DNA from: a virus | IMG/VR virus record: IMGVR_UViG_3300044492_000058 | Coordinates: 1-35,223 of that record | Direction: 5' to 3' (one strand) | DNA: 35,223 nucleotides | Shown: in pieces, positions 3,141 to 8,780 of the stretch | How positions within the stretch are numbered: position 1 is the stretch's first letter | Layout: each line of letters starts with the position of its first letter | The notes under the pieces: generated by a model | Seen by the model: the letters and a program-made list of their open reading frames with translations, nothing else | Database searches by the model: none | Told to the model about the DNA's origin: nothing | Program-made: the position numbers and the translations under genes

Positions 3141-3200
3141 TAGCTTGCTCTTATGACAGCTACCTAGCTAGCTAGGTAGCTATCACCAGCGCACGCTGGC
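3140..3200 (+). repeat. Diverged hairpin cassette 4 (24-bp palindrome)
   Basis: AGCTTGCTCTT resembles the left flank of the other cassettes. It is followed by a perfect 24-bp palindrome at 3158-3181, made largely of repeated CTAG, and by a small stem CCAGCG / CGCTGG. The usual right flank is missing, so this copy is either degenerate or a variant. Confidence 0.55.
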
Positions 3201-4324: not shown

Positions 4325-4388
4325 CTTGCTTTTACCATACTACCCTAGCTTGCTAGGGTAGCGTGGCAAGCGCAAGCTTGGCACTACA
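4322..4388 (+). repeat. Intergenic hairpin cassette 6
   Basis: ACTTGCTTTT, the perfect stem CTACCCTAGC (4340-4349) / GCTAGGGTAG (4352-4361), and then GGCAAGCGCAAGCTTGGCACTA. The flanks match cassettes 1, 2 and 5 and the stem is again unique. Confidence 0.7.
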
Positions 4389-4606: not shown

Positions 4607-4624
4607 ACTAACAGATTGTTTTGA

Positions 4625-4674
4625 CCATTACAGCATGGCAACATGCTGTAGTGGCCAGCACAAGCTGGAAAGTG
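4625..4674 (+). repeat. Intergenic hairpin (diverged cassette)
   Basis: CCATTACAGCATG (4625-4637) pairs with 4642-4654 over a GCAA tetraloop (13 bp with one G-T pair). A short stem CCAGC / GCTGG follows. The conserved flanks of the other cassettes are absent. GCAA is a stable GNRA-type loop, which favours an RNA function. Confidence 0.5.
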
Positions 4675-6179: not shown

Positions 6180-6365
6180 ATGGGTAGACAAGTAACAACT
6201 AAAGATTTTCCACGTATTCACGTACGACTAACGCCAGAATTGTATGAATTTCTTAGTAAAGAAGCTGCTAAAGAATTCCGTACTATAAATAACGAAATAA
6301 CACTGCGGTTAACGCAATCAATGCTCCTGGCGAAGAAGGATGTAACCTATAATGAGCGAAACTGA
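6180..6365 (+). CDS. Arc-type ribbon-helix-helix DNA-binding protein
   Basis: The 61-residue product matches the Arc/MetJ fold. A short strand FPRIHVRLT (about 10-18) is followed by the helix PELYEFLSKEAAKE and by TINNEITLRLTQSMLLA (about 35-51), the usual place of the second helix. Such dimers bind operator DNA. The start at 6180 is two bases after the previous stop. Its 3' end overlaps the Tas-like gene by 14 bases, so the two are probably translationally coupled and co-regulated. It may be the operon's own repressor (inference). Confidence 0.75.
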   Translation: MGRQVTTKDFPRIHVRLTPELYEFLSKEAAKEFRTINNEITLRLTQSMLLAKKDVTYNERN

Positions 6366-7200
6366 AACAACTGATTTTGATGCTGCGGAAATTCTTGGTA
6401 GTATTGAGCGTTTAACTAAGGATTTGCGTAACGCATCTGTAACGTTATCTAATCGTGAAGTAAGATTTCTAGTAGATAGTTACTATGCAATGCAGCGTGA
6501 TCGTATTCGCGCTAGTCACCAGACTAGAACACTTGAAAAGAACGAAGAACCGCATGTAGTATTGAATTGGCTTACTGGACAGAGAAGTACACTAGAGAAA
6601 CAAGTTGCCAGAGCATTAGATGCATATAGTGCAAGTAATCCGGCAAGTGCATGGGCCAGGAGCATTACAGGTATTGGTCCGATCATTTCGGCAGGATTAG
6701 TAACTCATATTGACATAACAAAAGCGCCAACTGTTGGGCATATTTGGCGTTATGCTGGCCAAGATCCAACTATGGTATGGAATAAGAAAGAAAAACGCCC
6801 GTGGAATGGTTCATTGAAACGACTTTGTTGGATTATTGGCGAAAGTTTCGTTAAAGTATCTACTAACGATAACGATATTTATGGTAAAGTATACGTTGCT
6901 CGTAAGCAACAAGAAATTATTAAGAATGAAGCACTAGAATTCAAGTCACAAGCAGAACATGCATTAGCAACCAAGAATTTTAGTGCCGATACTGAGGCAA
7001 AGAAGCACTATTTAACTGGCAAATTACCGCCAGCCCATATACATGCTAGAGCGAAACGATATGCAGTAAAATTGTTCTTGTCACACCTGCATCATGTGAT
7101 GTATGAGTTGCACTTTAACGAGCCGCCGCCGAAGCCCTATGTTATTGACCACATGGGCCATACCCATTTCCTTGCGCCACCGAACTGGCCTAGGAAATAG
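6352..7200 (+). CDS. TasA-like Nop-domain protein of a TIGR-Tas system
   Basis: The 282-residue protein has a helical N-terminal region (about 1-100) and a part resembling the C-terminal domain of IS110 transposases and Nop proteins: SITGIGPIISAGLV (104-117, a helix-hairpin-helix GIGP), WRYAGQDP (132-139), NGSLKRLCWIIGESF (152-166) and a His-rich helix HARAKRYAVKLFLSHLHHVM (231-250). It ends GHTHFLAPPNWP. The DEDD/RuvC domain that IS110 transposases carry at the N-terminus is missing, and there is no HNH motif, so it is not a transposase, TasR or TasH. Twelve bases after its stop a 36-base-period dual-spacer array begins. Nop-domain protein plus such an array defines TIGR-Tas. By analogy it binds tigRNA and target DNA, and without a nuclease it would only bind or would recruit a partner. 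Confidence 0.82.
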   Translation: MSETETTDFDAAEILGSIERLTKDLRNASVTLSNREVRFLVDSYYAMQRDRIRASHQTRTLEKNEEPHVVLNWLTGQRSTLEKQVARALDAYSASNPASAWARSITGIGPIISAGLVTHIDITKAPTVGHIWRYAGQDPTMVWNKKEKRPWNGSLKRLCWIIGESFVKVSTNDNDIYGKVYVARKQQEIIKNEALEFKSQAEHALATKNFSADTEAKKHYLTGKLPPAHIHARAKRYAVKLFLSHLHHVMYELHFNEPPPKPYVIDHMGHTHFLAPPNWPRK

Positions 7201-7212
7201 TCAAGCTTCAAG

Positions 7213-8756
7213 AGTGTGCCACTAATATCGGAACGAGTTATTCCTGATCAGAGTACCAACAAGAGCGAACGAGTTACTTCTAGTGACAGTAACATCTCAG
7301 AAGAACGAGTTAGCAAACCAGATAGTAACATGAATGAATAACGAACCAGCGCGCTGGATAGTAACATACTTCTGAAGTGAGTCAGGTATAGTAATAGTAA
7401 CATGGCGTCGAAACGAGTTATTGCTGATCAGAGTGCCAACAAGAGCGAACGAATTAATCCCAGTGAGTGTGCCAAGGTAGACTAATGAGTCACCTGTTCA
7501 GATAGTAACATTTTAACCGAACGAGTTAAACGGAAGAAGTGTACCATCAATCGAGAACGAGTTATCAAGAAAGAATAGTACCATCAGACCAGAACGAGTC
7601 ATCTAAGTGGATAGTAACAAAGGGTTTGAACGAGTTAGCAGATCGGACAGTAACATTGTAATAGAACGAGTTAGGTTCTCAGATAGTACCATTTGACATG
7701 AACGAACCACGCTATCAGTGATAGTATCATGATTGTCGAGTGAGTCATTCCCCGTAACAGTAACACATTGCCGAAACGAGCCACAAACTAGAGAGTGTGC
7801 TAAGTAAATGGAGCGAGTTATTGGTTCATGAGTGTACCCGCGAAACCGAACGAGCCATTTGGAGCCAGAGTTCCATTCGAGTAACAGCGAAAGTTACTTG
7901 GCGATAGTAACATAGGAGCGGAACGAATCAGTGATGATATAGTGTACCATCATAAGTGAATGAGTCACAAAGCATGAATAGTACCATTTCACACGAACGA
8001 GTTAATGTTCCGGAGTGTACCATCGATCAAGTAACGAGTCATGACATTATAGTGTACCAGAAAGCGTAAACGAGTTACCTCTTACGATAGTAACATGCTA
8101 GATGAACGAATAAATTAAGGAGGAAACGAGAGAGTTATTATTCCAAGTGTACCACTGTGCAGAACGAAAGTTAAGTTCGCGAATAGTACCAGACCGTTGG
8201 AACGAGTTAGAAAATGCCGAGAGTACCATCGCTAACGAACGAGTCAAATCACCTTAGTGTGCCAACAAAATGTGAATGAGTTACGGAAGCAAACAGTAAC
8301 ATTTCCGATGAACGAGTTATGCACTGGAATAGTAACAAGAAAGGATAACGAACCAATTAGTCGGAGTGTGCCAATTGTAGGAGTGAACCACCTATCTCGG
8401 ATTAGTAACAAAGATAGGAGAGTGAACCAATCCGGTTGATAGTAACAAAATTGGTCAGTGAACCCTCAAAATCGATAGTATCATTGTAGGGAAGTGTAAC
8501 CAATTGGTTGGTTAGTAACAGCAACCCCGAGTGAGCTATGACCGGCTAGTGTACCACTGGTGTTTAAGCGAATCGTCATATGAGATAGTAACAAATGAAA
8601 CGAGTGAACCACCCGTCTTGATAGTAACAACGTACGGTAGTGAATCATTTAGTCGCGATAGTAACACAATGGTAGAATGAACCACCCTGCATGATAGTAA
8701 CAATCTGGTTTAGTGAACCATCGTGTATGACAGTAACAATTTCCCGGAGTGTTTCT
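7213..8756 (+). repeat. TIGR array, 42 units of ~36 bases with two 9-base spacers each
   Basis: The unit is motif 1 (consensus ATAGTAACA, variants AGTGTACCA, AGTGTGCCA, AGAGTACCA), a 9-base spacer A, motif 2 (AACGAGTTA or AGTGAACCA, nearly always with central GA) and a 9-base spacer B. Clean units start at 7250, 7286, 7322, 7358, 7394, 7430 and 7466. I count 42 motif-1 copies from 7213 to 8730, most exactly 36 bases apart and some 37-38. The last unit has a degenerate motif 2. Spacers share no common sequence. Published TIGR arrays are processed to 36-nt tigRNAs with two 9-nt spacers, which fits exactly. The array starts just after the Tas-like gene on the same strand, so it is probably co-transcribed. 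The conserved GA in motif 2 would suit a kink-turn, as in box C/D RNA (inference). Confidence 0.88.
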
Positions 8757-8775
8757 CCGGGCGGATCATTCCGCC
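8743..8775. terminator. Twin hairpins closing the TIGR array
   Basis: CCCGGAG (8743-8749) pairs with CTCCGGG (8755-8761), and overlapping it GGCGGA (8760-8765) pairs with TCCGCC (8770-8775). They lie between the end of the rightward array and the end of the leftward late operon, where a bidirectional barrier would be expected. Neither strand has a U-tract after the stems, so intrinsic termination is unproven. They could instead set the 3' end of the array transcript. Confidence 0.45.
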
Positions 8776-8780
8776 AGGAG

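What the first reader, a model, noticed from the sequence alone, without database searches (positions are those of the whole stretch)
6352..7200. Tas protein without a nuclease domain (TasA type)
The protein keeps the GIGP helix-hairpin-helix and following helices of the IS110 C-terminal/Nop region but has neither a DEDD/RuvC nor an HNH domain. An RNA-guided binder without cleavage could act as a repressor, a superinfection-control factor, a guide for modification, or a recruiter of a separate nuclease. Its conserved-looking C-terminal GHTHFLAPPNWP end is not an obvious part of the Nop fold.
Basis: partly seen in the sequence, partly recalled or inferred. Interest (0 to 1): 0.8.

Follow-up and report, generated by a model that had tools for sequence, protein, structure and literature searches.

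The report
Phage nuclease-less TIGR-TasA RNA-guided system
A soil phage carries a compact RNA-guided DNA-binding protein with no cutting domain, next to a store of about forty paired guides; this kind of system was first described in 2025, but the sequence suggests that the guide RNAs are kept in working order by evolution and swapped as whole pairs.

Summary
Window 6352-7200 encodes a 282-aa Tas protein made of a Nop-type domain alone. Its model matches TasH (Z 20.0) and TasR (Z 19.1) from residue 30-35 onward; their N-terminal nuclease domains and the IS110 serine are absent. This is TasA, already named in Faure et al. 2025 (PMC12045711): a new member of a known kind. One detail of the reading fails: the GHTHFLAPPNWP end is shared with TasR and TasH. 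Action without cleavage remains inference.

The tas stop codon runs into a TIGR array of 41 recognised units. New here: neighbouring edge repeats covary as a two-base-pair clamp between edge i and edge i+1 more than within one edge (window 34 of 37 Watson-Crick at each pair, 0 of 2000 shuffles), as expected of mature tigRNA ends. Against a near relative (TasA 31 synonymous, 0 nonsynonymous codon changes), guides are mostly unchanged or replaced as whole A+B pairs, in place and in order.

No target was found: none in the phage's own contig, none above chance in 2.03 Mb of related DNA. Most likely it is a tigRNA-guided DNA binder that blocks transcription or replication of other elements; target and outcome are unshown.

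The parts
6352..7200 (+). tasA, 282 aa, Nop-type Tas protein without nuclease domain
6670..6681 (+). GIGP helix-hairpin-helix motif (residues 107-110)
   Evidence: G107, G109, P110 invariant in 52 TasA
7156..7191 (+). C-terminal GHTHFLAPPNWP (residues 269-280), shared with TasR and TasH
   Evidence: alignment; conservation
7198..7203 (+). tas stop codon TAG running into the first, 5'-truncated edge repeat (AGTCA)
   Evidence: first loop 12 nt after the stop, as in 13 of 56 non-redundant loci
7200..8751 (+). TIGR array: 41 recognised loop repeats alternating with edge repeats, spacers mostly 9-10 nt
8105..8182 (+). irregular stretch of the array (over-long edges, one loop repeat missing), same layout in L002
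8755..8780 (+). hairpin closing the array, terminator-like; perfect in L002, one mismatch here
   Evidence: z -2.8; L002 z -4.7; L003 z -5.5
6180..6365 (+). 61-aa Arc/RHH-like protein overlapping the tasA start; found only with tasA in this phage group
5752..6177 (+). 141-aa protein, weak match to a phage repressor family; also present in three Tas-less relatives, so probably outside the cassette

Best explanation
A TIGR-TasA system carried by a tailed (contractile) phage. Shown or strongly supported: tasA encodes a solo Nop-type Tas protein, and the array that starts at its stop codon obeys the pairing rules of tigRNA. Inferred from the published TasA, TasR and TasH work: the transcript is cut in the edge repeats into ~36-nt tigRNAs, a TasA dimer holds one tigRNA by its edge and loop repeats, and spacers A and B pair with opposite strands of an 18-bp target, opening and bending it. 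Inferred here: with no nuclease in the protein or in its cassette, the effect is occupancy. The bound complex blocks transcription or replication of the target, which is probably another mobile element or a host locus and not the phage itself. The guide set is inherited and kept under purifying selection; now and then single units are replaced as whole A+B pairs.
For: Family: NF052498 above cut-off; TasR/TasH by sequence and fold. Array next to the gene: 85 of 87 TasA loci have a same-strand array within 4-4.5 kb; no chain in 5 shuffles of 40 kb or in 239 kb of Tas-less phage DNA. RNA structure: edge i position 7 with edge i+1 position 2, and 6 with 3: window 34/37 Watson-Crick each (shuffled means 19.5, 19.2; 0 of 2000 reach); same-edge pairing is weaker, 27/39 and 26/39. 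In 56 non-redundant arrays both pairs are standard in 924 of 956. Selection: TasA window against L002 has 31 synonymous and 0 nonsynonymous codon changes (dS 0.20, dN 0); of 32 retained units 25 have identical guides (two of these are parse artefacts, one is cut short), where 1.0-4.8 are expected at 10-17.5% neutral change. Pair turnover: 0 units sharing only one spacer, 26 retained units collinear and interspersed. Cassette: the RHH gene and tasA are absent from the six relatives of 52-56 kb examined, while the two genes before them occur in three. No own target: no properly parsed unit at <=2 mismatches in the 35-kb contig.
Against: No target was found anywhere, so DNA binding by this TasA and its effect are unshown; shuffled pairs did as well as real pairs. 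Recombination can move arrays apart from tas (L096 has the array of L086 but a TasA nearer L091), so guide conservation is not proof of selection in every pair; the RHH gene next to tasA also has a low dS of 0.05. Loop pairing 2-7 is imperfect in the window (30 of 41 Watson-Crick). Conserved histidines (H245, H247, H270, H272) leave room for a chemical role.
Confidence: 0.55

Rival explanations
1. TasA is the aiming part of a split nuclease: it recruits a separately encoded enzyme, such as an HNH protein, to the target.
For: An HNH_3 gene directly precedes tasA in L101, L102 and L107 (gap 33, overlap 15, gap 0 nt); in L100 an HNH-like gene lies 437 nt upstream with an array between. The gene order HNH then Nop matches the TasH fusion.
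Against: This cluster occurs in 4 of 61 loci examined and no member is near tasA in the window or L003. The L107 protein did not match TasH by sequence. They may be ordinary free-standing homing endonucleases.
Confidence: 0.08
2. A partition or DNA-bending aid: TasA with the small Arc/RHH-like protein helps maintain or integrate phage DNA, as proposed for TasA-ParB operons and for help to integrases in PMC12045711.
For: The RHH gene overlaps tasA and travels with it; its best PHROG is labelled 'partition protein ATPase'; a strong DNA bend is seen in TasR.
Against: RHH is found with tasA in only 3 of 87 loci. No site in the phage's own contig matches the guides. Forty diverse guides are more than one partition or attachment site would need.
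Confidence: 0.12
3. Self-regulation: the guides silence the phage's own genes in its life cycle.
For: The gene lies beside repressor-like genes.
Against: No properly parsed unit of the window (about 41) and none of the 48 of L003 has a target with <=2 mismatches in its own sequence. The contigs cover only part of a genome of about 52 kb.
Confidence: 0.06
4. A hidden catalytic activity, for example RNA processing by the conserved histidines near the C-terminus, makes TasA an enzyme.
For: H245, H247, H270 and H272 are kept in 47-51 of 52 TasA; the enzyme that matures tigRNA is unknown.
Against: The C-terminal HxH reads HTG in TasH and HVD in TasR. The authors find Tas needed but not catalytic for processing.
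Confidence: 0.07
5. A decayed or truncated IS110 transposase.
For: Weak Pfam Transposase_20 match, below its cut-off; PHROG 4285 labels the family 'transposase'.
Against: 0 nonsynonymous against 31 synonymous codon changes; full-length conserved family; array with maintained pairing; no serine.
Confidence: 0.01

Closest known systems
TIGR-TasA (Faure et al. 2025, PMC12045711; e.g. Flavonifractor plautii FpTasA)
   Same: Solo Nop domain, dual-repeat array with 9-nt spacers and 36-nt period, array beside the gene, found in phages.
   Different: Edge and loop repeats vary inside this one array; about 41 units against the 5 to 15 said to be usual; the tas stop codon merges with the first half-edge.
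TIGR-TasR (9mty)
   Same: Nop part and C-terminus aligned, Z 19.1; edge clamp as described for its structure.
   Different: No N-terminal RuvC (TasR residues before 112 unmatched).
TIGR-TasH (9w04, 21kl)
   Same: Best fold match, Z 20.0 over 227 residues.
   Different: No N-terminal HNH (TasH residues before 64 unmatched).
IS110-family transposases (IS621, ISCro4)
   Same: Nop/Tnp-like part, Z about 14.
   Different: No DEDD domain, no serine, an array in place of a bridge RNA.
Archaeal Nop5 of box C/D RNPs (1nt2)
   Same: Weak fold match, Z 7.4; two guide segments held between two box-like motifs.
   Different: Phage system; partners such as fibrillarin or L7Ae were not searched for specifically.

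Membership tests
TIGR-Tas | Nop-domain Tas protein | tested here: met
   NF052498 199.9 bits, cut-off 100; Z 19-20 to TasR/TasH
TIGR-Tas | Adjacent array of two alternating 8-12 nt repeats with ~9-nt spacers | tested here: met
TIGR-Tas | Box C/D-like pairing in edge and loop repeats | tested here: met
   edge clamp standard in 924 of 956 neighbours; loop 2-7 covariation z 11, though 30 of 41 Watson-Crick in the window
TIGR-Tas | Array ends with truncated edge and terminator | tested here: met
   half-edge 8748-8751, hairpin 8755-8780; the consensus terminator scan did not list it
TIGR-Tas | Processing into 36-nt tigRNA bound by Tas | not testable with these tools
   needs RNA sequencing
TIGR-Tas | tigRNA-directed DNA binding with spacers A and B on opposite strands | tested here: inconclusive
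   no target found; weak purine anticorrelation of A and B in the expected direction, r -0.097, p 0.010, one of 11 tests
TasA subtype | No nuclease domain | tested here: met
TasR | N-terminal RuvC | tested here: not met
   only about 30 residues before the Nop part
TasH | N-terminal HNH | tested here: not met
   only about 30 residues before the Nop part; no HNH match
IS110 transposase | DEDD domain and catalytic serine (residue roles recalled) | tested here: not met
   no N-terminal domain; serine in 0 of 52 at the aligned column

The most novel reading that the evidence does not exclude
Phage TIGR-TasA arrays are stable, inherited guide libraries: each A+B pair is a unit of selection kept almost unchanged while silent sites of tasA drift, and new pairs arrive by whole-unit replacement anywhere in the array, unlike the end-on growth of CRISPR. 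TasA uses them as a non-cutting, multi-target repressor of rival elements or host loci, in the manner proposed for type IV and V-M CRISPR.
Probability: 0.35. Interest if true: 0.75.

Novelty: new member of a known kind. Interest (0 to 1): 0.5.

Why it matters
The role of nuclease-less TasA, the commonest Tas effector, is named as open by its discoverers, as are the origin and upkeep of the arrays (PMC12045711). Variation inside single arrays gives a comparative test that a given array is working. Arrays of related phages suggest that guides are conserved and turn over as pairs. That makes function and array evolution testable from sequence, and marks the conserved guides as the ones worth chasing for targets.

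Tried and rejected
Targets. The order spacer A + reverse complement of B was deduced from the cut geometry in PMC12045711 (3' overhangs fit only this order). Four orders were tried in the window and in L002-L005, two orders in 0.96 Mb, then 941 distinct units (A of 9-10 nt, B of 8-10 nt; others dropped) in 2.03 Mb with arrays masked. Expected order, gap 0: 0 units at <=1 mismatch, against 4.8 per shuffle; 67 at 2 mismatches, against 48.8. The reverse order gave 7 at one mismatch, gap 0, against 2.2. With many cells I read this as noise. In one search one 14-letter query reached 2 mismatches in the window, but it comes from the misparsed irregular stretch and carries no weight. Two conserved guides against all IMG/VR gave 1 and 3 hits; of the three, two are the same phage and the third is unrelated to it: chance. 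One Halomonas-prophage guide in four genomes gave nothing better than 2 mismatches.

Codon periodicity of guide drift was not seen: differences a multiple of 3 apart 71 of 266, expected share 0.296. Conserved partner gene: none across loci apart from clade-specific genes. PADLOC: no match. Rfam: no match. Promoter scan: fewer sites than in shuffles, not used. hhalign to IS110 failed because my script picked wrong reading frames; repeated with MAFFT. My first array parsers were too loose or misread long edges; figures use the later one. It still misreads the edge at 7886, which by eye accounts for both non-standard pairs in the window; L002 with the same layout gives 37 of 37 standard.

Results against the reading: 2 of the 25 identical units lie in the irregular stretch and are parse artefacts, and the unit at 8167 is cut short; 22 clean ones remain. 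The retained class was capped at 4 or 6 differences, which lowers its divergence; the next class starts at 8. Pairs L091/L096 and L092/L096 show guides more diverged than tas dS.

Full report
What is there. The window is a 35,223-base virus record from IMG/VR. Its right part codes for a contractile-tailed phage: portal, head protease, major head protein, tail sheath, tape measure, baseplate and tail fibres. The ORF at 6352-7200 encodes 282 aa. Pfam sees only a sub-threshold IS110 match, PHROGs files it under 'transposase', and NCBIfam NF052498 'TIGR-Tas system RNA-guided endonuclease' takes it well above cut-off. That last name does not fit a protein without a nuclease domain.

No nuclease. 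A model from 52 TasA sequences (pLDDT 86.8, pTM 0.82) matches TasH (Z 20.0, 227 residues), TasR (Z 19.1, 193 residues), ISCro4 and IS621 (Z about 14) and, weakly, Nop5 (Z 7.4). In the Tas and IS110 rows the match starts at model residue 30-35, and at residue 64 of TasH, 112 of TasR and 125 of IS621, after their nuclease domains. The first 30 residues are mostly of low confidence and too short for one. The serine column of IS110 proteins from the genome that holds L074 (KBS 96) holds E, D, K, N and others, never S, in 52 TasA.

The array. Edge repeats (AACGAGTTA to AGTGAACCA) and loop repeats (ATAGTAACA to AGTGTACCA) alternate with mostly 9-nt spacers from the tas stop codon to a hairpin at 8755-8780. 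41 loop repeats were recognised. In 13 of 56 non-redundant loci the first loop repeat starts exactly 12 nt after the stop, so the stop codon and the first half-edge merge; in 28 of 56 it starts within 14 nt. Of 87 TasA loci, 85 have a same-strand array within 4-4.5 kb (71 downstream, 32 upstream, none on the other strand). L094 ends at the tas gene; L104 gave no chain.

A clamp between neighbouring edges. Repeats in this array vary, which allows a test. Among pairs of repeat positions in 298 units of 9 arrays, the two strongest links are position 6 of one edge with position 3 of the next, and 7 with 2 (z 32 and 28 against within-array shuffles). In the window each is Watson-Crick in 34 of 37 neighbours (shuffled means 19.5 and 19.2; 0 of 2000 reach), against 27 and 26 of 39 within the same edge. 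In 56 non-redundant arrays both pairs are standard in 924 of 956 neighbours (16 near-duplicate loci dropped). The two halves meet only in a tigRNA cut in mid-edge, as the TasR structure shows. The paper reports covariation across TasR arrays. Finding it link by link inside single TasA arrays indicates that these guide RNAs are maintained.

Guides are conserved or replaced as pairs. L002 has the same TasA with 31 synonymous and 0 nonsynonymous codon changes (dS 0.20). Its array has 25 units with identical guides, 7 with 1-3 changes, 8 replaced and 3 private units on each side (two of the 25 are parse artefacts and one is cut short). At 10-17.5% neutral change, 1.0-4.8 identical units of 32 are expected. 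Genes on both sides have dS 0.05 (RHH), 0.11, 0.14, 0.23 and 0.51; one downstream gene could not be computed. Retained units are interspersed, 26 of 28 matches are collinear, and no unit shares only one spacer. In 30 of 30 array pairs with tas dS of 0.1 or more and at least 3 retained units, retained guides diverged less than tas silent sites (39 pairs in all, many of them not independent). The cut-off of 4 differences favours this, and L096 shows that arrays and tas can recombine. L003, with 88% identical TasA, shares no unit at <=4 differences with the window.

Context. Six relatives of 52-56 kb lack Tas. Two genes just before the RHH gene occur in three of them, while RHH and tasA occur only in G002, so RHH-tasA-array looks like an inserted cassette. 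RHH is found in 3 of 87 TasA loci. No partner is general. In three loci an HNH_3 gene sits directly before tasA, and in a fourth an HNH-like gene lies a little further upstream.

Targets. None found; see Tried and rejected. The discoverers also report difficulty in finding targets.

Mechanism. By the published TasA/TasR/TasH work (sections 4-10, 24, 35, 44 and legends of PMC12045711 read; passages; TasH structures seen only as database rows), TasA should bind 36-nt tigRNA and pair both strands of a short site. Lacking a nuclease in the protein or cassette, occupancy is the simplest outcome: blocking transcription or replication of rival elements or host genes. That step is inference.

Novelty. 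The TasA class is published. Searches of the held library for 'TIGR-Tas', for TIGR terms and for 'tigRNA' listed the discovery paper, one review on TIGR-Tas and passing mentions; only the discovery paper was read, the others were seen as listings. Its main text holds no passage on 'turnover', 'orthologous', 'closely related' or 'spacer content'. Array turnover and guide conservation therefore seem unreported as far as those searches go; supplements and subscription papers were not seen.

Noticed in passing
L101:3043-3552, L102:9453-10016, L107:9489-10001; L100:2636-3130: HNH_3 genes directly before or overlapping tasA, inside the TIGR locus; L100 has a more distant HNH-like gene with an array between. 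Possible split TasH, or homing endonucleases.
   Followed up: partly
L096: Array identical to L086 (26 of 26 units) but TasA closer to L091: tas and array can be exchanged separately.
   Followed up: no
window 8105-8182: Stretch with over-long edges and a missing loop repeat, kept in L002 too.
   Followed up: no
L003 about 6611-6640: Inverted repeat ATCTTTAGCAACAATATTGTTACAAAGAT between tasA and the array, absent in the window.
   Followed up: no
window 3142-3197, 4325-4376, 4612-4667: Three long near-perfect palindromes in the small-gene region, unexplained.
   Followed up: no
941 units of the family: Ninth spacer base is G in about 90% of units (67-77% in window plus L003), so guides are effectively 8 nt plus G in most TasA arrays.
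   Followed up: partly
792 de-duplicated units: Purine content of spacers A and B anticorrelates within units (r -0.097, p 0.010; G with G r -0.113, p 0.002), as expected if they read opposite strands of strand-biased DNA; 11 tests made.
   Followed up: partly
PHROG 4285, NCBIfam NF052498: Databases name this protein 'transposase' and 'endonuclease', neither of which fits a TasA.
   Followed up: no
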